Shown here in pieces: positions 7,392 to 64,000 of a DNA stretch of 64,000 nt. The translations under genes were made by a program, and so were the position numbers. The stretch comes from a virus: positions 47,031 to 111,030 of IMG/VR virus record IMGVR_UViG_3300046514_000687, one strand, 5' to 3'. A model generated the notes under the pieces. The model worked only from the letters and a program-made list of their open reading frames with translations. It was not told the origin of the DNA and did no database searches. Every line of letters begins with the position of its first letter. The first letter of the stretch is position 1.

Positions 7392-7420
7392 GCCACCTAC
7401 GCGCGTGAGAGGAGATGGAC

Positions 7421-8191
7421 ATGGCTGAAGAACGAGGGTGCGGCGAGCGGATCGCTGGCGGGGTGTACCTGGAGACCCGCCTGTCGCCCACGGGTCACCC
7501 ACTAGAGTGTTTCTTCATGGACCCGCCGGGGCCGGTGAACACCGGCGGGCTGGGCATCACGCCCCGCGGCGTGAGCCTGATCACCGGGGAGGGCGGCGTC
7601 ACCCACGTCTGGGACCTCGTCGGCGGCGACAGCTACCCCAACGTCGCGGACATCATCGAGGAGGGCCGGCGCCTGGGGTTCAGCCGCCGCATCGCCAGCA
7701 CGGCCGACTTCAGCCGCCTCACGCGGTCGTCGCGGCTGATCCTGCTCCACCCCCGCGCGATCATCTTCACCGATCACCAGCGGTACCTCGACGCGGAGCA
7801 GACCATCGACGGCCTGCTGCGCTCCTGCTGCCCGCAGGTCGTCGCGGGAGAGCACTGCGGGCGCCGCCTCGGCCCCGCCCACCCCACCGCGCCCGACCGC
7901 CTCTGCGGGCGGTACTGGTACCACGACATCACCGGCGGGGTGGAGCCTGACGCGGCCGACAGCGAGAGCGGCCGGGCCGTCGAGGGCGAGGTCCAGCGGA
8001 CGGTCGGTAGGACTCGCTACTTCGCCTACCCCCGCCCGGAGGGGTGCGTGCCCGAGTACCGGGTGGGGATCATCGGCGCCTTCCCAATCAGCGGCCTGGC
8101 CGTCGTTGCCGATCCCCTGGAGGGAAAGCACGAGGAGGGCTACGCCGCCGCGAAGCACAGCAGCCTGCCCGTCACCATCGAGCGCGACTAG
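7421..8191 (+). CDS. Uncharacterised CGERIxGGVYLE-type protein
   Basis: The second ATG (7421) has the better spacing to GAGAGGAG; ATG 7415 overlaps it. 256 residues in two parts: an N-terminal region with GGVYLETRLSPTG...FMDPP and a region rich in FSRLTRSSRLILLHPRA, then a Cys/His part (CGRRLGPAHPT). I recall similar uncharacterised proteins in Chloroflexi and Planctomycetes elements, but cannot assign a function. Confidence 0.6.
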   Translation: MAEERGCGERIAGGVYLETRLSPTGHPLECFFMDPPGPVNTGGLGITPRGVSLITGEGGVTHVWDLVGGDSYPNVADIIEEGRRLGFSRRIASTADFSRLTRSSRLILLHPRAIIFTDHQRYLDAEQTIDGLLRSCCPQVVAGEHCGRRLGPAHPTAPDRLCGRYWYHDITGGVEPDAADSESGRAVEGEVQRTVGRTRYFAYPRPEGCVPEYRVGIIGAFPISGLAVVADPLEGKHEEGYAAAKHSSLPVTIERD

Positions 8192-8219
8192 GCGCACCAC
8201 CCGCGCAAGGAGGAGAACC

Positions 8220-9035
8220 GTGGACGAGGACACCGAGAACACCCAGCCCGCGCTCCTGCCGGCCGAGCGGCCGGAGGGCCGCCCCGCCACCGTGCCCTGC
8301 CACCAGATCGCCTTCAGCAGCCCGCTGGAGCCCAGCCCCAGCCTCCGCCGGTCGGTAGCGGCGGTGGGGATCCTCCAGCCGCTGCTGATCCGCCGGAACC
8401 CCAACGGAGACAGCCTCTGCCCCTGGGTGGTCACCGACGGCAACCGACGCCTGCGCGCCGCGCTACTGGCCGACCTGACCAGCGTGCCGACGCTGATCAT
8501 CGAGGGCGACGCCAACTGGGGCGCGGTCGCCCAGCTCAGCACGAACGCCACTCGCTCGCAGAACCTGGCGGCCGACCTCAAGAGCGTGGAGCAGCTCGCT
8601 ACGGCGGGCTACACGGCGAAGGAGATCGGCCAGGCCGTCGGGCTCACCCGCGTTCAGGTAGAGCGCCTGCTGGGTATGCAGCGGTTGGACCCGGTACTGC
8701 GGCAAGGGCTCGACGACGGGAAGCTGACGCTGGGCACGGCGACCGAAGCGGCGAAGCTGCCGGTGGTCAGCCAGGAGGCGCTGGCCGAGAAGTTCACCAA
8801 CGAGGGCAAGCTGACGGGCGGGGACATCGCGGAGCAGAAGACCGCCCGCGCCGCGCAGGCGCTCGCGATGACCGACGTGGACGAGTTCCTGGTGGACGCG
8901 CCGACGCTGCCCGAGCACGAGGAGCGAGCGCGGTTCGTCAGCCTCGCTCGCCAGGCCCACGACTACGCGGTGCAGGACAACCGCGCCGCCGCCATCGCCA
9001 CCCTGGAGACCCTGATTAGCGCCCTGGAGAGTTAG
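8220..9035 (+). CDS. ParB-like nuclease/HTH protein
   Basis: GTG behind AAGGAGG. Residues 25-115 have the ParB/Srx layout: GILQPLLIRR box and VTDGNRRLRAALLA box. Residues 126-155 (YTAKEIGQAVGLTRVQVERLL) are the HTH. The length of 271 fits a ParB without a large dimer domain. It could bind phage DNA for regulation or partition, or act as a CTP-using switch as known for ParB. No ParA is next to it. Two more ParB-like proteins occur at 51379 and 51912. Confidence 0.8.
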   Translation: MDEDTENTQPALLPAERPEGRPATVPCHQIAFSSPLEPSPSLRRSVAAVGILQPLLIRRNPNGDSLCPWVVTDGNRRLRAALLADLTSVPTLIIEGDANWGAVAQLSTNATRSQNLAADLKSVEQLATAGYTAKEIGQAVGLTRVQVERLLGMQRLDPVLRQGLDDGKLTLGTATEAAKLPVVSQEALAEKFTNEGKLTGGDIAEQKTARAAQALAMTDVDEFLVDAPTLPEHEERARFVSLARQAHDYAVQDNRAAAIATLETLISALES

Positions 9036-9056
9036 CGGAAGACCCACCGGGCCGAG

Positions 9057-9112
9057 TGGCCCTCACTGGCCCGGTGGGTTATAATCAAGTGTAGGTACCC
9101 CCGCAAGGTACC
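9057..9112 (+). promoter_or_regulatory. P3 promoter/operator
   Basis: TGGCCC (9057), 17 bp, TATAAT 9080-9085, GGTACC at 9094 and 9107 (7-nt gap), GCAGCAC, then a longer leader to GGAGG and ATG 9139. Confidence 0.8.
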
Positions 9113-9138
9113 GCAGCACAAAGCGCGTGGAGGAACAG

Positions 9139-9996
9139 ATGGACACCAAGCAGACCAAGGAGCCGTCGGTCCGGCAGGCTTGCGCAGAGGCCGCGCGCGG
9201 GCTCCTCGCAGCCCACGGGGAGCTGCGAGCGCTGGACGCCTGGAACGGCAGCCGCGTGCCGGCGGAGGCGAAGCGGTCGCTGAACGCGGTGATCGCAGAC
9301 TGGGTGGCGCGCAACGAGCCGCCGCTGTCGGTCCACGCCCGCCTGGCGGCGCTGATCAACGCGGAGCACCCCGTGGTGGGGGAGGTCCGCTACCAGGTCC
9401 GCCTGGCGATGGTCCACCACCTGCGCGACGGCTGGGCAGGCACCGGCGCGGGTGCGCCGGTCGAGACGATTCCCCCACTCGACGAGCCGACCCCCGACCT
9501 GCCGCCCAGCGGCCTCGACGTGGAGACGCTGGTACGGCAGGCGCTTGCCGAGACCGCGCCGGAGGCAGAGCCGGAAGCTGCACCGGAGCCGCCCGCGCCC
9601 GCTACCCCCGACGCCTGGGAGTGCGGCCTCTGCGGCCTGGTCATCGCTGACCAGGCCGCGCTGGTCACTCACATCGCTGACTGCGAGGGGCCAATCGCGC
9701 CGACGGAGGAGGAACCCCTGCCCCCCGCCGGCCCCGCCCTGGTGTTTAGCTACGGCGGCACCGAGATCCACCGCGAGCCGGCGCCGGAGGAGCCGGCCGG
9801 CTCAGCCTCGCCGGTGGACGACTCCGGCGGGCGCTACGAGTGCGCCCTGTGCGGCATGGTCACGGAGGGCCAGGCGGTGCTGGAGGCCCACCTCGCTCAG
9901 TGCACCGGCACGGGGAGCAGCGGGCGGTCGAGCCGCCGCGGCAGCGCGGTGCCGAAGCCGGCGAGCAAGAAGCGCAGTGCCAAGAGTCGCCGCTAG
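9139..9996 (+). CDS. Protein with two CCHC zinc fingers
   Basis: ATG preferred over GTG 9127 because GGAGG lies between them. 285 residues: helical N-terminus, acidic Pro-rich linkers, then two repeated fingers, CGLCGLVIADQAALVTHIADC and CALCGMVTEGQAVLEAHLAQC, about 75 residues apart, and a basic Ser/Lys/Arg tail. It looks like a DNA-binding protein made of two like fingers on flexible linkers, unusual for phage. Confidence 0.7.
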   Translation: MDTKQTKEPSVRQACAEAARGLLAAHGELRALDAWNGSRVPAEAKRSLNAVIADWVARNEPPLSVHARLAALINAEHPVVGEVRYQVRLAMVHHLRDGWAGTGAGAPVETIPPLDEPTPDLPPSGLDVETLVRQALAETAPEAEPEAAPEPPAPATPDAWECGLCGLVIADQAALVTHIADCEGPIAPTEEEPLPPAGPALVFSYGGTEIHREPAPEEPAGSASPVDDSGGRYECALCGMVTEGQAVLEAHLAQCTGTGSSGRSSRRGSAVPKPASKKRSAKSRR

Positions 9997-10012
9997 GCGC
10001 AGTCGGCAGCAC

Positions 10013-10040
10013 GGGCGCGCCCCGCCGGCGGGGCGCGCCC
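10013..10040. repeat. 28-bp perfect palindrome around GCCCCGCCGGCGGGGC
   Basis: Perfect self-complementary sequence between two genes, centred on GCC|GGC. It shares its 16-bp core with the copies at 13837, 42542, 62175 and 62739. It could act as a terminator hairpin here, but no U-run follows. Confidence 0.7.
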
Positions 10041-10060
10041 GGTCGCACAGGGAGGCACTC

Positions 10061-10450
10061 GTGAGCTACCTCATCGTCCAGAACGCCGACTCGCGCTTCC
10101 GCCGCCACCTGGCGCTGGCCACCGGGCCGGGCCGGGTGTACGGTCAGCCAAACCCTGCCGTCCGCGCGCTGTGCGGCCAGTGGCCGGGCAAGGGCACTGC
10201 CATCGGGACGCCCGGCGCGGAGTGGGCGCGGTCCTGGGACGCTACCCAGCCGCAGCCCGATCCGTTCAACCAGTGGATCTGCCCGGACTGCGAGGCCAGC
10301 CTGACCGCCGAGCGCGAGGGCTACGACTGGCTGCTGCCGCCCAGCGACCGCCTGGGACACCTGCGGGAGCGAGTGCAGCGCCTAGCCACCGAGGTCGCAG
10401 CCCTGCGCGCGCAATACGTGCCGCCGGAGAGCACGGAGGACGCCGGCTGA
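10061..10450 (+). CDS. Hypothetical protein with Cys pairs and coiled tail
   Basis: GTG behind GGGAGG; 129 residues. Contains ALCGQWPGKGTA and WICPDCEASL, a plausible split zinc site, and a coiled-coil C-terminus (LRERVQRLATEVAALRAQY). The N-terminal part resembles small phage proteins that start with a substrate-like fold, but I cannot name it. Confidence 0.6.
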   Translation: MSYLIVQNADSRFRRHLALATGPGRVYGQPNPAVRALCGQWPGKGTAIGTPGAEWARSWDATQPQPDPFNQWICPDCEASLTAEREGYDWLLPPSDRLGHLRERVQRLATEVAALRAQYVPPESTEDAG

Positions 10451-11214
10451 TGGAGATGGAGACCGAGATCCGCATCGAGCAGCAGAACGACGGGCGCTGG
10501 CTGGTGATCCTGGTGCGGCCGGTGCTGGAGCAGGCCTACGGACCCTACGACCTGCCGGAGGCCCAGCGCCAGGCCGACCGGCTGCGCAACCTGTACCGCA
10601 GCGAGAACGGCGCCGTCTTAGAGCGGGTGGCTCAGGCCGTCCACGACGGGATGCAGGCCGACGGGCTCAAGCCGTCGGCCTGCATCGCCGGAGCCGCCGC
10701 GATCCGCGACCTGCTGAGCAGCGACGCAGCCGACGAGACGGCGGGCATCTTGCCCGTGGAGCTGGTCGCCGTGACGGCTGCCGCCTTCAACGCGCCGGGC
10801 TGGCGGCTCCTGCTGGCGCACAGCGACCCGCACCGCGACCCGGCGCGCTGGGCCGCCGACGGCGCGTGGAGCGTCGGGCTGGGGTTCGGCGCGGACCCGG
10901 AGCCGGGCCGCTGGCCGGGCCACCTGGTCGCGGTGGTCGACCGCCGCTGGCTGGTGGACCCGACGCTGGGCCAGGCCAGCCGCCCGGACCGGGGCCTAAC
11001 CCTCCCGGATATCCTGGTCCTGCCGCTCACCGAGCGGTGGGTGCGGGGGCGCGAGGACACCGTGATCCGCCTGCCCGGCGACACCACCGTGACCGTCGCG
11101 CGGCGGCGCAATGCCCCGTCTTTCCAGCACAGCCCGGACTGGCGGGAGTCCAGGCGCCGCACTCAGCGCGTGGCTGCGGCGCTGGCCCTGCTCCAGGCTG
11201 AGGAGGCGAGGTGA
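10450..11214 (+). CDS. Putative transglutaminase-like fold protein
   Basis: 254 residues, ATGA overlap. An N-terminal 50-residue strand-rich part precedes a domain with SACIAGAAAIRDLL (Cys-77 at a helix start), GHLVAVVDRRWLVDPTLGQ (His then Asp) and a later DILVLP. The order Cys-His-Asp and the VDPT phrase recall transglutaminase/papain-like proteins seen in actinobacterial plasmids. Catalytic assignment is inference. Confidence 0.5.
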   Translation: MEMETEIRIEQQNDGRWLVILVRPVLEQAYGPYDLPEAQRQADRLRNLYRSENGAVLERVAQAVHDGMQADGLKPSACIAGAAAIRDLLSSDAADETAGILPVELVAVTAAAFNAPGWRLLLAHSDPHRDPARWAADGAWSVGLGFGADPEPGRWPGHLVAVVDRRWLVDPTLGQASRPDRGLTLPDILVLPLTERWVRGREDTVIRLPGDTTVTVARRRNAPSFQHSPDWRESRRRTQRVAAALALLQAEEAR

Positions 11215-20220: not shown

Positions 20221-20293
20221 TGCCCGTGTACCGGCCGGTAGCTGGACGCAACCTATGAAGTTGCGGGAGGAGGTTCGACCCCTCCACGGGCAA
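20221..20293 (+). tRNA. tRNA-like gene, anticodon ATG (would read His CAU)
   Basis: 73 nt fold: a 7-bp acceptor TGCCCGT/ACGGGCA, an anticodon stem GCAAC/GTTGC with 7-nt loop CTATGAA, a T arm GGAGG/CCTCC with loop TTCGACC, and discriminator A. No CCA is encoded. The D arm is weak (CCG/TGG plus GG in the loop), and base 8 is G instead of T. Bacterial tRNAs rarely have A at position 34, and the G(-1) of tRNA-His is missing, so the identity is doubtful. Confidence 0.6.
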
Positions 20294-20322
20294 CCGGGTC
20301 TAGCGCGTGAAGGAGATGGACG

Positions 20323-53545: not shown

Positions 53546-55270
53546 GTGGAAGCGCCGACCCTGCCCCGCTACCCCGTCTACATCCCGTCGGTCGGCCGCG
53601 CCGCGGCGGACATGAGCCTCACGGCTAACTGCCTGACCCGCGACAGCATCCCCTTCTTCCTGGTGGTCCATCCGGAGGAGGCTGACGCCTACGCAGCGCG
53701 GTTCGCCCGCGCGCAGATCCTGGAACTGCCCTTCCCCAAGTGCGGCTACGCCGTGCCCGCGCGCAACTGGATCAAGGCCCACTCGCTCGCAAACGGCGAC
53801 GCGCGTCACTGGCAGCTCGATGACAACATGCGAATGTTCCGCCGCCGCTACCGCGGCAAGCGCATCCCCGTCAAGGCGGGCATCGCCCTGCGCGCTACCG
53901 AAGACTTCGTCGACCGCTACACCAACGTCGCCCTGGCCGCCATCCAGTACACGATGTTCGTGATCGCCAAGATGCCGGCCTTCTACGTCAATGCCCACGT
54001 CTACTCCTGCGTCGCCCCCGAGACGCCCGTCCTCTGCGCGGATCTGGTCTGGCGCGCGGCCGGGGAGCTGGCGGTGGGGCAGGAGATCGTGGCCTTCGAC
54101 GCGGAGCCCGCCCCGGCCGGTCGGGGCGTCAACGCGCGCAGCTACCGCACCGCGACGGTCCAGGCGAACCTGCCCGCGACGAAGCCCTCGTATCGCCTGT
54201 GGACCGATGACGGTCCGCCGATCCAGGCTAGCGCCGAACACCCGTGGCTCGTCTGGCGCGCTCCGTTGCGCCAGCGCCACTGGGGCGATGGGATGCCGGG
54301 AGACCCGCACGGGCGCGAGGAGCTGGGCTGGGTGCCGACCGCTGACCTGCGTGTCGGCGACCGCCTTGCCTTCCTCGGTGCGCCCTGGGAGCGGGACGAG
54401 TCTCACGAGGCTGGCTGGATCAGCGGGCTGTACGACGGCGAGGGCTCCTGCACGGTGCGCCAGCCGCCGGACGGGCGCGGCATCCAGCTCGGCATCGCGC
54501 AGGGCGACGGCCCGGTCCTCGACCGCCTGGTGACCGGACTGCGCGCGCGCGGGTATGGCGTCGGCGTCTCTGGCGCGGGCGGGTCGGGCTCGCAGGTCGT
54601 ACGGACCGCGCGAATCGGCGACGGGTTCCGGGGCGCGCTCCGCTTTGCGGGCGAGTTCGGCCCGACTCGCCTGCTGGCCAAGGCTGCCCAGCTCTGGGAG
54701 GGGCGCGGCGTTCGCCAGGGCCAGTCGTACTCGCTGGCGACGATTACCGAGATCGTGCCGCTGGGCGACCAGCTCGTCGCCTCGATCCAGACCTCGACGG
54801 GGACATTCATTACAGCCGGCTACCTCACTCACAACTGCACGCTGGTCAACAACAGCATCCCCCACGCCTGGCGCGGGCGCTATAACGACGACACGGACAT
54901 CACGCTCCAGGTGCTCGCGGACGGCTGGTGCACCGTCGTGCTGAACGCCTTCATGGTCGACAAGATGCGGACGCTGACGATGAAAGGCGGCATGAACGGG
55001 GTCTACCAGGGCGACGGCCGCCTGGAGATGGCGCGCTCTCTGGAGCGCGTCTGGCCGGGGGTGGTGACCACGATCCGCCGCTTCAAGCGCCCGCAGCACT
55101 GGATCCGGAATCAGTGGCAGCACTTCGACACGCCGCTCCAGTACCGCCCGGACTTCGATCCCACCGCGCTGCCGAAGGTCGACGAGCTGGGGATGGAGCT
55201 GCGCGCCGTCCGCGAGGTGCAGAGCGCCCGCCTGCGCGGGCTGCTGGCCGACCGCGAGCCGCCCTCGTGA
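53546..55270 (+). CDS. TET/JBP-associated-type glycosyltransferase with intein
   Basis: 574 residues, of which 276 are an intein (54008-54835); the spliced protein has 298. Extein: YPVYIPSVGRAA, IPFFLVVHPEEADAY, HWQLDDNMRMF (catalytic DxD-like DDN), then after the intein RYNDDTDITLQVLADGWCTVVLN and a region that ends RNQWQHFDTPL. This order matches the TAGT family that glycosylates hydroxymethylated pyrimidines in phage DNA. A second, intein-free copy follows. Confidence 0.7.
   Translation: MEAPTLPRYPVYIPSVGRAAADMSLTANCLTRDSIPFFLVVHPEEADAYAARFARAQILELPFPKCGYAVPARNWIKAHSLANGDARHWQLDDNMRMFRRRYRGKRIPVKAGIALRATEDFVDRYTNVALAAIQYTMFVIAKMPAFYVNAHVYSCVAPETPVLCADLVWRAAGELAVGQEIVAFDAEPAPAGRGVNARSYRTATVQANLPATKPSYRLWTDDGPPIQASAEHPWLVWRAPLRQRHWGDGMPGDPHGREELGWVPTADLRVGDRLAFLGAPWERDESHEAGWISGLYDGEGSCTVRQPPDGRGIQLGIAQGDGPVLDRLVTGLRARGYGVGVSGAGGSGSQVVRTARIGDGFRGALRFAGEFGPTRLLAKAAQLWEGRGVRQGQSYSLATITEIVPLGDQLVASIQTSTGTFITAGYLTHNCTLVNNSIPHAWRGRYNDDTDITLQVLADGWCTVVLNAFMVDKMRTLTMKGGMNGVYQGDGRLEMARSLERVWPGVVTTIRRFKRPQHWIRNQWQHFDTPLQYRPDFDPTALPKVDELGMELRAVREVQSARLRGLLADREPPS
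54008..54835 (+). other. Class 1 intein with LAGLIDADG endonuclease in glycosyltransferase
   Basis: 276 residues. N-end CVAPETPVLC, Cys-1 nucleophile; block B IQASAEHPWL; endonuclease motif GWISGLYDGEGSC; C-end SIQTSTGTFITAGYLTHN followed by extein Cys. It interrupts at YS|C. The insertion point corresponds to a Cys kept in the downstream paralogue. Confidence 0.85.
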
Positions 55271-56037
55271 CCGCTGCCCTCCGCTACCCCATCTACATTC
55301 CGAGCAAGGAACGCGCGGGTGTGGCTCCCCTGCCCGACCTGCTCGCTGCCGCCGGCGTGCCCTACCGCCTGGCCGTGGACCCGCCGGACGTCGAGGCTTA
55401 CACGGCCCGCTACGGCGCCGCGGCGGTGTTTCCGCTCCCCCCAGCCGGCGTCGGCTCCATCTTTGCCGCGCGCGACGCGATCCGGGCCGATGCGGCGGCC
55501 GGGCCGGCCACTCGCCACTGGCAGCTCGACGACGATATCCGCCAGTTCCTCGCCTGGACCGACGGCCGGCGGCAGCCCTGCGACCCCATCTACGCGCTCG
55601 GCGCCGTCGAGGCGTTCGCGGACCGCCACACCAATATCGGAGTGGCCGGCCCGGCGTTCAGCCTGTGGGCCTTCCGCCCCCGCCACGCGCTCCGCGTCAA
55701 CGGCCCCGTCGTCTGCGCGCTGTTGATTGACAACGCGCTCCCCTGCCGCTTCCGCGGCCCCTGCTCCGAGGACCTGGACTTCAACCTCCAGGCTCTTGCC
55801 GCCGGCCACTGCACCGTCGTTCTCCAGACTGTCCAGTTCGTCATCGTGGGGACCATGACCCAGCCTGGCGGTATGCGCCCCGTCTACAGCCGGAGCGACG
55901 GCCGCTTGCGCCTCGTGCGGGATCTAGAGCGCCGCTGGCCCGGCGTCGTGACGACGCGCCGCGTCTACGGCGAGCCGCGGCCCCATATCGCCTGGCGGAA
56001 GTTCGACACGCCGCTACGCCCCTGCTCGGACGCCTAG
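55267..56037 (+). CDS. TET/JBP-associated-type glycosyltransferase, second copy
   Basis: GTGA overlap; 256 residues. YPIYIPSKERAG, VPYRLAVDPPDVEAY, RHWQLDDDIRQF, GPCSEDLDFNLQALAAGHCTVV and IAWRKFDTPL match the 53546 exteins throughout, so the two are tandem paralogues. They might act on different sugars or add sugars in sequence. No base oxygenase or hydroxymethyltransferase is visible in the window. Confidence 0.7.
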   Translation: MTAALRYPIYIPSKERAGVAPLPDLLAAAGVPYRLAVDPPDVEAYTARYGAAAVFPLPPAGVGSIFAARDAIRADAAAGPATRHWQLDDDIRQFLAWTDGRRQPCDPIYALGAVEAFADRHTNIGVAGPAFSLWAFRPRHALRVNGPVVCALLIDNALPCRFRGPCSEDLDFNLQALAAGHCTVVLQTVQFVIVGTMTQPGGMRPVYSRSDGRLRLVRDLERRWPGVVTTRRVYGEPRPHIAWRKFDTPLRPCSDA

Positions 56038-56583: not shown

Positions 56584-58797
56584 GTGGTCCTCACCGCCCC
56601 GCCGTCGGACGACCCGCTCCGCTTCGCCTACCAGCGCCCCTGGGTCTACCCCAAGCAGGAACTAGCGATCTGGAGCGAGGCCCGCTACGCCTGCATCGAG
56701 GCCTCGACTAAAAGCGGCAAGGCCCAGCCCCTCGATGCGGCGGTCTGGACCCCGGACGGCCCGCGTCCGATGGGGACTATGGTGCTAGGCCAGCGTGTCC
56801 TGACCCCTACCGGCCAGGCCACGCTAGTCGGTATCTACCCGCAGGGGGACCGCGCGATCTACCGCGTCAGCTTCTCTAACGGCGCGGCTACCGAGTGCAC
56901 GGACGATCACCTCTGGGAGGTCCACGGCCTGCGCCCCGGCCAGCCCGCCGTGCTGACGACTGCTCAGCTCCGGGCGATTCCCGCGCGCCGGCGTCGGAAG
57001 CTCTGGGTACCCGTAGCAGAGCCGGTGGAGATGACGCCGCGCCCCGTGCCGATGGACCCCTACTTGCTCGGGGTCCTGCTCGGGGACGGTGGCCTGACCA
57101 CCGATACTATCCGGTTTGCTACCACGGACCCCGAGATCGTGGACTCTGTCGCGGCTGCTACGGAGCCCTGGTATGAGGTGCGGCACGACGACCGCTGCAA
57201 CTACCGGGTCGCCACCCGCGTTTCCTACCAGCGCATCCCCCGCGCCGAGCGCCTAGGGGCGGTCCTCCGCGACCTCGACGTGTGGGGCCGCTACGCGCAC
57301 GAGAAGCACGTCCCCGCGCTCTACCGCTACAACAGCACGGACGTGCGCCTCGCAGTTCTGCAGGGGCTCCTCGATACCGATGGCTGGGTCGACGCGCGCG
57401 GCCAGCCCGAGTTCAGCACCAGCTCGCCTACGCTGGCGACCCACGTAGTCGAGCTAGTCGAGAGCCTGGGGGGCCTCGCGCGCATCCGTGAGCAGCCGAC
57501 CCCCGGCCGCTTAGCCCATCGCGTCCGCGTCACCCACCCCGACGCACCGTCCCTCTTCCGCCTGGCCCGGAAGCGCGCGCGCGCGCGCCCGAAGGTCAAG
57601 CACATGCGCCGCACCATCCGGGCGATCACCCTGGTCGCCACGCGCCCGGCGCAGTGCATCCAGCTCGACGATCCCCGCGGCCTCTACCTGACCGACCGCT
57701 TTATCGCTACCCATAACACCGTCGGCTGCCTCCTCTGGTTCGCCGAGCAGGCCATGCAGGGCGGCCCCGGCCGCAACTACTGGTGGGTCGCTCCCATCTT
57801 CGCCCAGTCGAAGATCGCCTACCGCCGCCTGAAGTTCGGCCTGCCCGCCGACCTCTACCACGCCAACGACGGCGAGATGACGCTCACCCTGCCGAACGGC
57901 GCCGTCCTCTGGTTCAAGAGCGGTGAGAAACCAGACTCGCTATATGGCGAGGACGTGTATGCCGCCGTCATAGATGAAGCGTCGCGCGTCCGGGAAGAGT
58001 CCTGGCACGCGGTCCGTTCCACCCTTACCGCTACTCAGGGGCCCATCCGCATCATCGGCAACGTGAAGGGCCGCAAGAACTGGGCGTTTCGCCTCGCCCG
58101 CCGCGCCGAGGCCGGCGAGCAGAACATGTCCTACCAGAAGATCACTGCTCACGACGCCGCCGCGGCTGGCGTGCTGGATCCCGAGGAGGTGGCCGACGCC
58201 GAGCGCCTGCTGCCCCCGGACGTCTACAAGGAGCTGTACCTGGCCGAGGCCAGCGAGGACCAGGGCAACCCCTTCGGCTATGCCGCCATCGCCGCCTGCG
58301 TCGGCCCGCTCAGCAGTGCGCTCCCCGTCGTCTGGGGCTGGGACGTGGCCCGCAGCCACGACTTCACCGTCGGCATCGCGCTCGACGCGGAGGGCGCCGT
58401 CTGCCACTTCGAGCGCTTCCAGATGCCCTGGCCCGAGACGATCGACACCATCGAGCGCGTCACCCAGGACGTGCCCGCCTGGGTCGACGCCACCGGCATC
58501 GGCGATGCCCCGACGCAGGAGCTACAGCGCCGCCGCAGCAACTTCAACGCCTTCCTCTTCACCGGCTCCAGCAAGCAGGCGCTGATGGAGGGGCTCGCTA
58601 TCGCCATCCAGAGTCGTCGCGTCCGCTACCCCGCGGGCCAGATCAAGACCGAGCTGGACGACTTCGAGTACGTCTATACCCGCACCGGAGTCCGCTACTC
58701 CGCGCCAGAGGGCGCGTTCGACGACGCGGTGTGTGCCCTGGCCTTAGCCAACCTTCATCGGCAACAGGCCCTGGAGGGCGGCTGGAGGCTGCTGTGA
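56584..58797 (+). CDS. terL: Terminase large subunit interrupted by intein
   Basis: GTG; 737 residues including a 332-residue intein; the spliced 405-residue product is of normal length. ATPase: STKSGK|T Walker A (split by the intein), YAAVIDEASRV Walker B. Nuclease: VVWGWDVARSHDFTVG, WVDATGIGDAPTQEL and FDDAVCALALA acidic residues. Packages phage DNA at the portal. Confidence 0.9.
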   Translation: MVLTAPPSDDPLRFAYQRPWVYPKQELAIWSEARYACIEASTKSGKAQPLDAAVWTPDGPRPMGTMVLGQRVLTPTGQATLVGIYPQGDRAIYRVSFSNGAATECTDDHLWEVHGLRPGQPAVLTTAQLRAIPARRRRKLWVPVAEPVEMTPRPVPMDPYLLGVLLGDGGLTTDTIRFATTDPEIVDSVAAATEPWYEVRHDDRCNYRVATRVSYQRIPRAERLGAVLRDLDVWGRYAHEKHVPALYRYNSTDVRLAVLQGLLDTDGWVDARGQPEFSTSSPTLATHVVELVESLGGLARIREQPTPGRLAHRVRVTHPDAPSLFRLARKRARARPKVKHMRRTIRAITLVATRPAQCIQLDDPRGLYLTDRFIATHNTVGCLLWFAEQAMQGGPGRNYWWVAPIFAQSKIAYRRLKFGLPADLYHANDGEMTLTLPNGAVLWFKSGEKPDSLYGEDVYAAVIDEASRVREESWHAVRSTLTATQGPIRIIGNVKGRKNWAFRLARRAEAGEQNMSYQKITAHDAAAAGVLDPEEVADAERLLPPDVYKELYLAEASEDQGNPFGYAAIAACVGPLSSALPVVWGWDVARSHDFTVGIALDAEGAVCHFERFQMPWPETIDTIERVTQDVPAWVDATGIGDAPTQELQRRRSNFNAFLFTGSSKQALMEGLAIAIQSRRVRYPAGQIKTELDDFEYVYTRTGVRYSAPEGAFDDAVCALALANLHRQQALEGGWRLL
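56722..57717 (+). other. Class 3 intein (WCT type) in TerL Walker A
   Basis: Starts AQPLDAAV with Ala rather than Cys at position 1. Block B is TDDHLWEV with Trp-65 at B:12. Block F is AQCIQLDDP with Cys-312. The end is ATHN with Thr-330, followed by extein Thr. Trp/Cys/Thr in these places defines class 3 inteins, which splice from the internal Cys. Two LAGLIDADG motifs (LLGVLLGDGGL, LQGLLDTDGWV) are present. Confidence 0.8.
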
Positions 58798-59846: not shown

Positions 59847-59915
59847 GGGGACGAGCGCTACCCGGCTTGCTGCTGTGCGCCCCATCGCGCATGCTAGCGT
59901 GTGGAGGTGGCGCTG

Positions 59916-62900
59916 ATGGCCGACGGCCTGCTCGACCGCCTGGGGGCTAGCCTGCGCGCGCTGGTCAGCCTCTACGGCCCCCGCGCCGACAGAGCAGCGT
60001 TCGGACTTTTAACCGGCATCCTGCCCGGCGGGCGCGGCGAGCTGTCTCCCCGCGGCACCAACGAGTACCTGAAAGCCTACTCCGAGTCGCCCTGGCTACG
60101 CGCCGTGGTCCAGAAGATCGCCCACGTCGTCGCGACTACCGAGTGGCAGCTCTACGTCGCCAAGGCGCCCCCGGCCGCCCCCGGCGTGACCGGCAAGGTC
60201 TATCAGGACCGCGCCTTCCAGCGCGACAGCGACTGGCGCCGCCGTGCCTACCGCCGCAAGGAGCTGGCCAGCACCGGCGACCTTCAGCAGCTCGACACTC
60301 ACCCCATGCTCGACCTGCTGAACAGTACGAACACCTTCCTCACCGGGCTGATGACCCGCCAGCTCACGCAGATCTACCTGGACCTCGTCGGCGAGGCGTT
60401 CTGGGTCAAGGAGCGCAAGACCAAGACCGGCCCGCCCATCGCCGTCTGGCCGATCCCGCCCACCTGGGTCTTCGCCACTCCCACGCCCATCCGTCCCTAC
60501 TTCGAGGTGCGCTACCGCGGCTGGCAGGTGGAGATCCCCGACACCGAGGTCCTCTGGATGGCCGACCCGAACCCGCTGAACCCCTACGGGCGCGGCGCTG
60601 GCATGACCCACGCGCTTGGCGACGAGCTGGACACCGACGAGTACGCCGCGCGCCACACCAAGCTCTGGTTCCAGAACCGCGCCCGGCCGGACGTGCTGAT
60701 CACCATGGAGGGCGCCAACCCCGCCGAGGTCGCGCGCCTGGAGCAGGACTGGCTGTCTAAGAGCCAGGGCTTCTGGCGGGCGTTCAAGCCGTACTTCCTC
60801 AGCGGCAAGGGCAACGTCCAGATCAAGGAGCTGAACCAGACTTTCCAGGACATGCAGCTTATCGAGCTGCGCAAGTTCGAGCGCGACATGGTGATGCAGG
60901 TCTACGGGGTTAGCCCCGAGATCATGGGCGTGCTCGCTAACTCGAATAGGGCAACGATCACCGCGGCGGACTACATGTTCGCGCGCTGGGTGGTCACGCC
61001 GCGCCTGGAGTTTCAGCGGGCGATCCTCCAGGAGCGCCTGGCGCCGGAGTTCGACGAGCGCCTGATCGTCGACTACGCTAGCCCCATCCAGCGCGACGAA
61101 GACCACGAGCTGGCCGTCGCCACCGCCGCGCCCTACGTGCTGACCGTGGACGAGTGGCGCGAGATGCTGCACCTGCCCGCCCTGCCCAAGAAGCAGGGCC
61201 AGGTCCACATGGTGCCCAGCACGCTGACCGCGGTGGAGGACATCAGCAGCCACGCGCCGCCGCCGCCGACCATGTTCCCGGCTTCGCCGGGGGGCAGGCT
61301 GCCCCCCGGCCAGAAGCCGGGGCTGCTCCCGCCCGGCGAGGCGCCGCCCGCGGACGGCCAGGCGCCCCCCGGCCAGAAGCCGCCCAAGGCCGCGAGCTGG
61401 TCTACGCCCGCCGGCACGCTCGCCGCCCAGGCCCAGTGGCGCGGCGTGGCCGGCATGCTCCAGAAGGCCCAGGGCCACGACGGCTTCATGGTTGCCCTGT
61501 GGGTGCCTGCCGCCAGCGCCGGCCTGCTCGCCCTGCCCGGCGCCGAGCCGCCCGACCAGCTCCACTGCACGCTGGCCTTCTGCGGCCCCTACCGCCAGGT
61601 GCCCGTCGTCCAGCTCGGCGACACGCTGGCGGCGCTGGACGCGCTCGCCGCGGACTGGGCGCCGCTGGACGGCGCGATCGGCGGCTACGGCCAGTTCACC
61701 GGCACGGCCGGCCCCGGCGTGGAGGGGGCGCAGGACGTGTTCTACGCCTCGCTCGACGTGCCCGGCCTGGTCGAGCTGCGCCAGGCGGTCGTGACCGTGC
61801 TGGTCGCCCACGGCATCCCGCCGCTGGCGAACCACGGCTTCACGCCCCACGTCACGCTGGCCTACCTGCCGCAGGGCACCGCGGCGCCGTCGCCGTCGGT
61901 GCAGAACCTGCCGCTCCACTTCGACGCCCTCACGCTGGCGCTCGGCGACACGCACCTGTCGGTCCCGCTCACCGGGCCGCTCTCGGGCGCCATCGTGCCC
62001 CTACCGCTACCGCACCCGCAACTCGCCCCAGAGACCCGCGCCGGGCCGTACAGCGTCAAGGAGGCCCATCCCACGATCCCGCCCGCGGAGATCCAGGCGG
62101 CGCGAGACTGGTGGCGGCAGGCCGTCGCCCCGACCGCCGGCATTGCCGCGGGCCTGCTAGACGCCGCGCCCGTGGGCGCCCCGCCGGCGGGGCGCCGGAC
62201 GAACGGCTACGCGGTCACCCGCTTTAACCCGGTGCACGATCCGCATAGCGGTGAGTTCGCTAGCGGTGAAGGCGACGACGGCGGAGCTGCGTCGCCGCGC
62301 CCGGCGCTGACCGGTCTCGCGCGGCGCATGGTCGAGGTTGACGTAGCCGGTGACACGCTCCGCGACCTATTCAGCAGCGACCCGGATGCGTCTGCCAATA
62401 TCGCCGATAACTACAACCTCAACACCGTGACCGATCGCATGCGGGAGCAGGCCGCGCGCCAGGTCCAGGCGCTCAGCCAATGGACGCTTCAGCAGCGCGG
62501 CGTGCCGGACCCCGCGACCGTCTGGCGCGCGGGCGAAGTGGGCGCCGAGATTGTCAGTGCCTCGTTGGAGGAGGGCGGCGCGCGGTCCTTCGCTCGCCGT
62601 ACCGGGATGGACCAAAGCCGCGTCACTGGCTACACTATCCCTCGTGCCGCCATCCTGGTTGACGTGAATGGGGTGAAGGGCAGCCGTCAGCCGTACCCCG
62701 GCGAGGCTGAGGTACTGGTCCGCGGCGAGACACTCCGTGCCCCGCCGGCGGGGCGCCGGACGAACGGCCACGCCGTCACTCGCTACTCCGCAGACCAGCC
62801 GCGCGAGCCGGCTGGCAGCAGTGCGGGCGGAGAGTGGGCCGGCGCAGCCGGTGGCTTGCCCGCGTTAGCGCCCGCCCCCAGCGACGCCTCGGGGAACTTG

Positions 62901-64000
62901 CTCCACCCGGCCTACGCCTACATTGCCGCAACCGGCTACGCCGACCGTGACAGCGACATTCAGAGTATTCGCGAGGAGCGCGTCCGCGATGCGACGGCGG
63001 CTGACCTGGCCGCTCGCGTGCAGGCCCAGCTCGGCGCGGCGAGTCCCTTCCCCGACGCCGCCGCGGCCTCTGCCTGGCTCCGGCCCCTCCTCGTGGACTG
63101 GGGGAATAGCGCGCGCTCGTCCTCAGTCTTGGCCCTCCACGAGGCTGTGCGCCAGAAGTTCGACCTGCCGACCGAGGCAATGCGAGGTATTGACCCGGTC
63201 CCGCCGAGCCCGGAGCAGCGCGCCCTGGTCGACGCGATCTACGCGAACACGCAGGCGCACCTGGCTGCGGCGGGCATCACCGAACTGACGCTTGCTCGCG
63301 GAGCGCGGGTGCGAGATACCTACCTGCCGTCCGGCTTCCAGTCCGACGCGGATCCCCGCCACGGCGCGCAGCACGTCGATGCTCCCGCGCTGCTCGCCCC
63401 CCTGTCCTCCTGGACCGGCAGCGCGCAGATGGCTGGGCAGTTCACTAGCTTCCTGGCGCAGGCGCCCCGCGACGCGTCGATCCCGCGCACGCGCGTCCAG
63501 CTCACCGCGACGGTCCCCGCAGCCCGGATCTTCAGCACCGGACGCACGGGGCTGGGTGAACTGCGCGGCACCGAGTTCGTGCTGGTCGGGGGACAGAGCG
63601 CGGTGCGCTGGCACGCTTTCGAGTCGGGGGCCGGCTTCGTCTATCGCGCTGCCGCTCTCGCGAGCGGCTTGTCGCCGGTGGACGAGGATGCAGTCAGCGC
63701 CGACTGGCTGCGTGTCGCCCTGGACCACCCGGGGCTGGTCGCCCGCGCCTTTAATCCCGACCAGCCCCGCGACGACCACGGCCAGTGGACCAGCGACGGC
63801 GGCGTAGCGACTCTGCCAACGCCCTCCGGCAGCGGCCCCTCCCCGACGCAGATGGCCAGCGAGCTGCAGGGCCACGATAGCCTCGCCAAGTACACCCGCC
63901 CGGACGGCACGCTGGAGCCCGCGCGCCAGGCCCTCCACGACGCGATCGTCGCCCGCGCTCTCGTCGGCGTCCCCAGCCAGGCCCACCCCACCGCCTACCT
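59916..64000 (+). CDS. Portal fused to 2H phosphoesterase, two ART-like domains and a kinase start (partial)
   Basis: ATG behind GGAGGT; open to the window end, at least 1361 codons. 1-440: HK97-type phage portal (YSESPWLRAVVQKIAHVVAT, FWVKERKTKTGPPIAVWPI, MVMQVYGVSPEIMGV). 447-492: Pro/Gly-rich linker. 505-690: 2H phosphoesterase, LHCTLAF (548) and HVTLAYL (644). 760-790: linker RTNGYAVTRFNPVHDP. 820-940: ADP-ribosyltransferase-like, VWRAG (868), SAS, PGEAEVLV (930). 947: second linker. 1085-1245: second ART-like, LARG, LSSWTG, GTEFVLV (first Glu of ExE lost). 1277: third linker. From 1325 DGTLEPARQALHDAI resembles the lead-in to zeta-type kinases. Confidence 0.8.
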   Translation, partial: MADGLLDRLGASLRALVSLYGPRADRAAFGLLTGILPGGRGELSPRGTNEYLKAYSESPWLRAVVQKIAHVVATTEWQLYVAKAPPAAPGVTGKVYQDRAFQRDSDWRRRAYRRKELASTGDLQQLDTHPMLDLLNSTNTFLTGLMTRQLTQIYLDLVGEAFWVKERKTKTGPPIAVWPIPPTWVFATPTPIRPYFEVRYRGWQVEIPDTEVLWMADPNPLNPYGRGAGMTHALGDELDTDEYAARHTKLWFQNRARPDVLITMEGANPAEVARLEQDWLSKSQGFWRAFKPYFLSGKGNVQIKELNQTFQDMQLIELRKFERDMVMQVYGVSPEIMGVLANSNRATITAADYMFARWVVTPRLEFQRAILQERLAPEFDERLIVDYASPIQRDEDHELAVATAAPYVLTVDEWREMLHLPALPKKQGQVHMVPSTLTAVEDISSHAPPPPTMFPASPGGRLPPGQKPGLLPPGEAPPADGQAPPGQKPPKAASWSTPAGTLAAQAQWRGVAGMLQKAQGHDGFMVALWVPAASAGLLALPGAEPPDQLHCTLAFCGPYRQVPVVQLGDTLAALDALAADWAPLDGAIGGYGQFTGTAGPGVEGAQDVFYASLDVPGLVELRQAVVTVLVAHGIPPLANHGFTPHVTLAYLPQGTAAPSPSVQNLPLHFDALTLALGDTHLSVPLTGPLSGAIVPLPLPHPQLAPETRAGPYSVKEAHPTIPPAEIQAARDWWRQAVAPTAGIAAGLLDAAPVGAPPAGRRTNGYAVTRFNPVHDPHSGEFASGEGDDGGAASPRPALTGLARRMVEVDVAGDTLRDLFSSDPDASANIADNYNLNTVTDRMREQAARQVQALSQWTLQQRGVPDPATVWRAGEVGAEIVSASLEEGGARSFARRTGMDQSRVTGYTIPRAAILVDVNGVKGSRQPYPGEAEVLVRGETLRAPPAGRRTNGHAVTRYSADQPREPAGSSAGGEWAGAAGGLPALAPAPSDASGNLLHPAYAYIAATGYADRDSDIQSIREERVRDATAADLAARVQAQLGAASPFPDAAAASAWLRPLLVDWGNSARSSSVLALHEAVRQKFDLPTEAMRGIDPVPPSPEQRALVDAIYANTQAHLAAAGITELTLARGARVRDTYLPSGFQSDADPRHGAQHVDAPALLAPLSSWTGSAQMAGQFTSFLAQAPRDASIPRTRVQLTATVPAARIFSTGRTGLGELRGTEFVLVGGQSAVRWHAFESGAGFVYRAAALASGLSPVDEDAVSADWLRVALDHPGLVARAFNPDQPRDDHGQWTSDGGVATLPTPSGSGPSPTQMASELQGHDSLAKYTRPDGTLEPARQALHDAIVARALVGVPSQAHPTAY
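62175..62196. repeat. 22-bp palindrome at module border 1
   Basis: Perfect inverted repeat with the core GCCCCGCCGGCGGGGC, encoding APPAGRR at the join between the 2H part and the first ART-like module. It begins a 30-bp direct repeat (62179-62208 = 62739-62768). Confidence 0.7.
62739..62754. repeat. 16-bp palindrome core at module border 2
   Basis: Second copy of the core and of the 30-bp direct repeat, at the join between the first and second ART-like modules. The two copies bracket the first ART-like module. Confidence 0.7.

What the first reader, a model, noticed from the sequence alone, without database searches (positions are those of the whole stretch)
59916..64000. Portal fused to 2H, two ADP-ribosyltransferase-like domains and a kinase lead-in
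A single reading frame carries the portal and a chain of effector-type domains joined by repeated linkers. Polyvalent phage proteins with ART, 2H and zeta-type domains are known (Iyer, Aravind and colleagues), but a portal carrying four such units in a row is unusual. The effectors might be cleaved off and packaged inside the head, then delivered with the DNA to modify host RNA or protein.
Basis: partly seen in the sequence, partly recalled or inferred. Interest (0 to 1): 0.85.

Follow-up and report, generated by a model that had tools for sequence, protein, structure and literature searches.

The report
Phage portal protein carrying four enzymes
A bacterial virus makes its DNA-gate protein as one 1,560-residue chain ending in four enzyme modules (an RNA or nucleotide phosphoesterase, two predicted ADP-ribosyltransferases and a zeta-type kinase), the last three each preceded by a short tag that also recurs in front of similar enzymes in many other phages, so it is probably a set of host-attack tools built into the virus head.

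Summary
The frame opens at ATG 59916 and runs off the window. The contig ends overlap by 152 nt, and a second assembly carries the junction, so the frame is 1,564 codons from the GTG upstream (1,559 from the ATG), ending at contig base 747. Order: HK97-type portal (PF04860), 2H phosphoesterase (PF13563, both HxT motifs), ART-like 1, ART-like 2, zeta kinase (PF06414). ART2 is one of seven paralogous ART domains spread over the portal and the next two genes. ART1 has R, SxS and ExE motifs, but its fold prediction failed.

The idea is known: 2H and ART fusions to portals and zeta fusions to MuF are published (polyvalent proteins, MuF toxins). New here are four effectors in a row on one portal, at least eleven effector-type domains across three adjacent head genes, and above all the linkers. 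They are a conserved tag, [FY]NP[DE][QE]PRDxxG[RQ]W[T]xGGG, with a sister form WDESQHPRxPAGSxxGG[QE]F. The tag joins portal, MuF and protease domains to ART, zeta, NUDIX and nuclease domains in unrelated phages, and also starts stand-alone head-module proteins. Cleavage, packaging and delivery remain untested.

The parts
59916..64000 (+). Portal-effector polyprotein ORF (ATG start); continues across the contig junction to contig base 747, 1,559 codons from this ATG (1,564 from the upstream GTG at 59901)
   Evidence: uninterrupted in independent assembly L012
60048..61262 (+). HK97-type portal domain (residues 50-454)
   Evidence: PF04860 3.8e-37; phrog_2662 2.2e-60
61251..61400 (+). Pro-rich spacer between portal and 2H (no tag here)
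   Evidence: sequence
61479..61970 (+). 2H phosphoesterase; HxT motifs LHCTLAF (61560) and HVTLAYL (61848)
   Evidence: PF13563 1.6e-10, phrog_14859 RNA ligase 3e-16
62178..62216 (+). 39-nt direct repeat, copy 1 (APPAGRRTNGYAV), before ART1
   Evidence: 2 mismatches to copy 2
62223..62273 (+). Tag variant FNPVHDPHSGEFASGEG before ART1
   Evidence: sequence
62289..62741 (+). ART-like domain 1 (R876, S886-x-S888, E935-x-E937)
   Evidence: motifs; weak sub-threshold hits that include ARTs; model failed
62739..62777 (+). 39-nt direct repeat, copy 2 (APPAGRRTNGHAV), after ART1
62784..62843 (+). Tag, type 2-like: YSADQPREPAGSSAGGEWAG
   Evidence: type 2 survey
62898..63728 (+). ART domain 2 (R1133, S1170-W1171, E1225), one of seven paralogues
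   Evidence: alignment A3; AF2 pLDDT 80.6; BFVD matches; paralogue passes the DRAT cut-off
63750..63803 (+). Tag, type 1: FNPDQPRDDHGQWTSDGG
   Evidence: tag HMM i-E 3.6e-11
63849..64000 (.). 152-nt overlap with contig bases 1-152 (1 mismatch at 63975)
63888..63998 (+). N-terminal part of the zeta-type kinase; P-loop and the rest lie at contig bases 149-747
   Evidence: PF06414 1.3e-24; alignment A5

Best explanation
This is a portal-effector polyprotein of a tailed phage. SHOWN by sequence: one chain holds an HK97-type portal, then 2H, ART-like 1, ART 2 and a zeta kinase, with a conserved tag before each of the last three; the next two genes carry six more ART-2 paralogues and further tagged domains; HK97-type prohead protease and capsid genes follow. 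INFERRED: the C-terminal arms face the inside of the head (as portal C-termini do), up to twelve copies each. During head maturation they are released, probably by the phage protease at or near the tags, since a portal stays in the capsid and no internal start sites were found. They then leave with the DNA at infection. In the cell the ARTs would modify host proteins (as T4 Alt modifies RNA polymerase), the 2H would trim RNA ends or destroy oligonucleotide alarm signals, and the zeta kinase would phosphorylate a sugar nucleotide. The tags act as cassette boundaries along which effectors are swapped, and may also serve as head-loading or processing signals.
For: Frame and junction verified in a second assembly. 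Domains. Catalytic motifs intact: 2H HxT twice, zeta Walker A plus conserved D/K/R, ART R, SW and E invariant in seven paralogues. Head-gene context: portal, MuF-like P0003, P0004, protease P0005 (phrog_80 4.9e-10) and capsid P0006 (PF05065 3.8e-46) lie in order. Tags: 75 viral stretches, all in long ORFs, flanked by portal, MuF or protease and by ART, zeta, NUDIX, InPase or nuclease domains. Stand-alone tagged proteins sit in head modules. Tag cores precede 10 of 29 distinct zeta relatives against 0.2 expected, maximum 3 in 2,000 shuffles. All 29 SNPs between two assemblies over 14.1 kb fall in tag-bounded effector regions or at their edge. ART1 is bracketed by 39-nt direct repeats. Published precedents.
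Against: No proteomic or functional data. The tags do not resemble the capsid protein's own N-terminal region, where HK97-type proteases cut, so cleavage at tags is a guess. The nearest portals lack effectors, so the arms are dispensable for portal function. The ART2 model found no PDB fold match and the ART1 model failed. The tag also occurs in a few bacterial genes away from recognisable phage genes, so it is not strictly a head signal.
Confidence: 0.6

Rival explanations
1. The effector arms stay attached to the portal and act during late infection or assembly inside the producing cell, not after injection.
For: No internal starts; no tag-like site in the capsid protein; portals are not ejected (general knowledge). 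[quoted passage not shown]
Against: T4 Alt is a head-packaged, injected ART (cited in PMC5512222). Tags also occur on stand-alone head-module proteins that are not portal parts.
Confidence: 0.2
2. It is a MuF-type polymorphic toxin system: effectors serve bacterial competition or lysogeny decisions and are matched by immunity genes.
For: Same toxin classes and same genome position as MuF toxins (PMC5576092, PMC11699363).
Against: No tyrosine or serine integrase and no ADP-ribosyl-hydrolase match in the record; no obvious immunity gene between the toxin genes; this carrier is the portal, not MuF. The record may be incomplete.
Confidence: 0.1
3. The extra domains are largely inert internal decoration (spacers or scaffold), spread by tag-mediated recombination.
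For: Repetitive tags, direct repeats, seven similar ARTs and clustered SNPs fit recombination-driven expansion.
Against: Catalytic residues are kept in 2H, zeta and all seven ART2-type paralogues.
Confidence: 0.08
4. Assembly artefact: false join or frameshift fusing separate genes.
For: The window end falls inside the gene and the contig ends overlap.
Against: The same ORF is uninterrupted in an independent assembly, with 2 amino-acid differences.
Confidence: 0.01

Closest known systems
Phage polyvalent proteins (Iyer et al. 2017, PMC5512222)
   Same: Several effector-type domains in one phage protein tied to the head; 2H fused to portal or MuF, InPase and PBECR fused to portal, zeta fused to MuF are all reported there
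   Different: Passages read there describe portal fusions with one effector; here four follow one portal, and a shared tag links three adjacent head genes
MuF polymorphic toxins (Jamet et al. 2017, PMC5576092; Bxa, PMC11699363)
   Same: Head-module proteins with C-terminal ART and other toxin domains
   Different: Carrier is the portal; several domains per chain; no immunity gene or integrase found
Phage T4 Alt (head-packaged ADP-ribosyltransferase)
   Same: ART made with the virion and thought to act at once on entry
   Different: Alt is a separate protein; no sequence relation was tested here
Portal-MuF and MuF-VIP2 fusions of actinophages (PMC7302621)
   Same: Fusion of head genes with each other and with an ART toxin
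   Different: Portal-MuF fusions there are described without an effector; VIP2 fusions carry one ART
Toxin-junction motifs of polymorphic toxins, such as VENN or DPxGL (from memory)
   Same: A short conserved motif marks where exchangeable toxin cassettes begin
   Different: The tag here is unrelated in letters and sits mainly in phage head proteins

Membership tests
HK97-type phage portal | Portal-family profile match over cut-off | tested here: met
   PF04860 128.6 bits against 39.1
2H phosphoesterase | Two HxT motifs within a LigT/2H-type domain | tested here: met
   PF13563 41.6 bits against 27; LHCT and HVT motifs
ADP-ribosyltransferase superfamily (ART2) | R, S-T/W, E catalytic pattern and ART fold | tested here: met
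   R, SW and E invariant in 7 paralogues; a paralogue passes PF07357; model pLDDT 80.6 resembles phage ARTs and a head-morphogenesis protein in BFVD, with the two named ARTs at prob 0.72, but has no PDB match
ADP-ribosyltransferase superfamily (ART1) | R-S-E pattern and ART fold | tested here: inconclusive
   Motifs present; LT-IIB, Enterotoxin_a and TreX hits E 0.17-1.2; fold model failed, pLDDT 35
Zeta toxin-type kinase | PF06414 match and Walker A | tested here: met
   87.2 bits against 22.3; GGGAAAGKST; invariant K, D and R residues with six relatives
Polyvalent phage proteins | Two or more effector-type domains in one polypeptide of a portal-terminase phage | tested here: met
   Four domains after a portal; terminase gene upstream
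Polyvalent phage proteins | Packaged in the virion and delivered into the host | not testable with these tools
   Needs virion proteomics
MuF polymorphic toxin | MuF domain in the toxin polypeptide | tested here: not met
   No MuF match in the portal ORF; the next gene is only MuF-like by position and Cys motif
MuF polymorphic toxin | Temperate phage with adjacent immunity gene | tested here: not met
   No integrase, resolvase or ADP-ribosyl-hydrolase match; no clear candidate gene; record may be partial

The most novel reading that the evidence does not exclude
The tag [FYW][ND]P[DE][QE]PRDxxG[RQEK]W (and WDESQHPRxPAGSxxGG[QE]F) is a general phage-head cargo signal: a short N-terminal peptide that loads, or is cut to release, interchangeable effector cassettes in tailed-phage heads, comparable to T4's capsid-targeting sequence but shared by unrelated phages.
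Probability: 0.25. Interest if true: 0.88.

Novelty: new variant of a known kind. Interest (0 to 1): 0.64.

Why it matters
It shows how far a phage can go in hanging enzymes on its head: one portal with four, and at least eleven effector-type domains over three neighbouring genes. The shared tag gives a simple sequence handle to find such effectors across uncultured phages, including ones with no known domain, and makes a long-guessed idea testable: that head proteins carry cargo enzymes into the host by a common loading or processing signal. A six-variant text search of 5.39 million open papers found no mention of the tag; subscription papers and other spellings were not covered.

Tried and rejected
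Frameshift or chimera: rejected by the second assembly. Internal translation starts before tags: the only in-frame SD-preceded start is at residue 220, inside the portal. Tag as the same site as the capsid N-terminal cleavage: no tag-like stretch in the capsid protein. ART1 fold: AF2 with three sequences failed; no relatives in viral contigs beyond the same phage or in sequenced phages. ART2 against PDB by Foldseek and by sequence: nothing usable. Type-2 tag by tblastn in phages: no match. A profile from seven zeta sequences was too diverse to scan with, so three were used.
Full report
WHAT WAS CLAIMED.

CHECK OF THE FRAME. The ORF is open from the ATG at 59916 to the window end. A good ribosome site (GGAGG) lies 8 nt upstream. 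The window is the right end of a 111,030-nt IMG/VR record, and its last 152 bases recur at the left end of the contig with one mismatch. Reading through the overlap gives 1,564 codons from the GTG at 59901, or 1,559 from the ATG. The predicted P-loop, IGGGAAAGKST, follows at once (codon 1367 spans 63999-64001). An independent assembly, L012 (contig IMGVR_UViG_3300047319_001486), holds the whole ORF in one piece with two amino-acid differences. GC at codon position 3 is high in all segments (0.81-0.97).

DOMAINS. Portal: PF04860, 3.8e-37. 2H: PF13563, 1.6e-10, with both HxT motifs. Zeta kinase: PF06414, 1.3e-24, on the part past the junction. ART2 (residues 1000-1276) has no direct Pfam match, but it is 25-56% identical to six domains in the next two genes (alignment A3). 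One of those proteins passes the DRAT cut-off (PF07357). R, S-W and E are invariant across the seven. Its AF2 model is good (pLDDT 80.6) and resembles a phage head-morphogenesis protein and, more weakly (prob 0.72), phage ADP-ribosyltransferases in BFVD, although no PDB match was found. A separate phage has the same domain fused to a true MuF domain (L138). ART1 (797-947) is weaker. It has R, SxS and ExE in order, and its sub-threshold hits include heat-labile enterotoxin A and TreX, both ARTs. It aligns at 32% with a tag-bordered domain in L021 that itself has only a sub-threshold ART hit. The fold prediction failed. I call it a likely ART.

NEIGHBOURS. Downstream, in contig order, come a 2,120-aa MuF-like protein (P0003: three ARTs of the ART2 family, a HELGH metallopeptidase-like stretch, and a C-terminal DUF3626-like domain at E 1.7e-4, below its cut-off), a 1,015-aa protein (P0004: three more ARTs), a prohead protease (P0005) and the capsid protein (P0006). 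The terminase lies upstream. This is a normal head module loaded with effector-type domains.

THE LINKERS ARE A CONSERVED TAG. Two forms occur: type 1, [FY]-N-P-[DE]-[QE]-P-R-D-x-x-G-[RQEK]-W-[T]-x-G-G-G, and type 2, W-D-E-S-Q-H-P-R-x-P-A-G-S-x-x-G-G-[QE]-F. In the 111-kb record they are confined to the portal, P0003 and P0004. A DNA pattern for type 1 hit 75 stretches in viral contigs, all inside long ORFs; type 2 hit 30. The sequences before and after the tag are unrelated to each other (mean column identity 6-7%). Before it: portals of three Pfam families, MuF, NUDIX, InPase, zeta, ART and S78 protease. After it: ART families, MuF, zeta, PBECR3, HNH and others. Some portals in this set also carry effectors: L101 has portal, InPase, tag and MuF, and L147, a prophage, has Mu-type portal, MuF, tag and a PBECR3-like domain, all at sub-threshold scores.

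The tag is more than a linker. In 19 of 64 distinct cases it lies within about 70 residues of the start of the open frame, sometimes 2-5 residues from a Met. Examples include a stand-alone zeta kinase (L092) and the gene annotated 'capsid maturation protease' in mycobacteriophages Predator and Megatron06 and in Nocardia phage P3.1. By sequence resemblance, several stand-alone tagged ORFs lie between MuF and capsid-side genes. As an independent test, I collected relatives of the zeta domain: the tag core precedes 10 of 29 distinct ones, against 0.2 expected from shuffles (maximum 3 in 2,000).

CASSETTE EXCHANGE. Over 14.1 kb shared with the second assembly there are 29 SNPs: 2 in ART1 (both change the residue), 18 in the C-terminal domain of P0003, and 9 in P0004 within or beside its first two ARTs. 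None lie in the portal, 2H, ART2, zeta, MuF-like core or the other ARTs. ART1 is also bracketed by 39-nt direct repeats with two mismatches.

HOW IT PROBABLY WORKS. The portal C-terminus faces the head interior (general knowledge). Portals stay in the capsid, so delivery needs the arms to be freed. Internal starts were looked for and not found, which leaves proteolysis or no release at all. The phage has its own HK97-type protease, but the capsid protein shows no tag-like site, so the cut site is unproven. Host targets are inferred by analogy with T4 Alt, with 2H enzymes that act on RNA ends or oligonucleotide signals, and with zeta kinases that act on sugar nucleotides.

WHAT IS KNOWN. Iyer et al. 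(PMC5512222) report 2H, PBECR and InPase domains fused to portals and zeta fused to MuF. PMC9503650 reports ART and NUDIX fusions to head proteins. Jamet et al. (PMC5576092) describe MuF toxins, and PMC7302621 describes portal-MuF and MuF-VIP2 fusions. The concept is therefore known. The four-domain portal, the spread of one ART family over three head genes, and the conserved tag were not in the passages I read, and six tag spellings returned no paper.

CAVEATS. The tag also starts multi-copy genes in Rhodospirillales MAGs and occurs in a gene of Methylocella tundrae without clear phage neighbours, so it may be a general toxin-cassette boundary and not a head signal. No integrase or ADP-ribosyl-hydrolase was found, but the record may be incomplete. 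The host is unknown.

Noticed in passing
L009:1064-7426 and 7408-10455 (contig bases): The two genes after the portal carry six further ARTs of the ART2 family, a HELGH metallopeptidase-like stretch and a DUF3626-like domain, with about ten tags.
   Followed up: partly
window 56584-58797: Terminase large subunit gene interrupted by an intein-like insert with a LAGLIDADG_3 match (1.3e-9).
   Followed up: partly
window 53546-55270 and 55270-56037: Two TET-associated glycosyltransferases (TAGT, 1.6e-37 and 2.3e-21), the first split by an intein-like insert; suggests glycosylated hypermodified DNA.
   Followed up: no
L142, L139, L141, L144, L148-L150: The tag begins multi-copy ORFs in Rhodospirillales MAGs and occurs in a Methylocella tundrae gene (next to what reads like secA) followed by two similar small genes: possible bacterial polymorphic toxins using the same boundary.
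   Followed up: partly
L028, L208, L175: Other recurrent Gly-rich phage linkers (GGPGSGNxGHxGRPGxxGGS; GHDQSAHAG) look like further tag classes.
   Followed up: no
L012 against the window and L009: All 29 SNPs over 14.1 kb cluster in or beside three tag-bounded effector regions.
   Followed up: yes
L094:4890-5831: A gene after a tagged ORF encodes a 2H domain with a faint match to anti-CBASS Acb1.
   Followed up: no
L009:11200-11290; window 20221-20295: A tRNA-like gene with unreadable anticodon between P0004 and the protease gene; a tRNA-His in the window.
   Followed up: no
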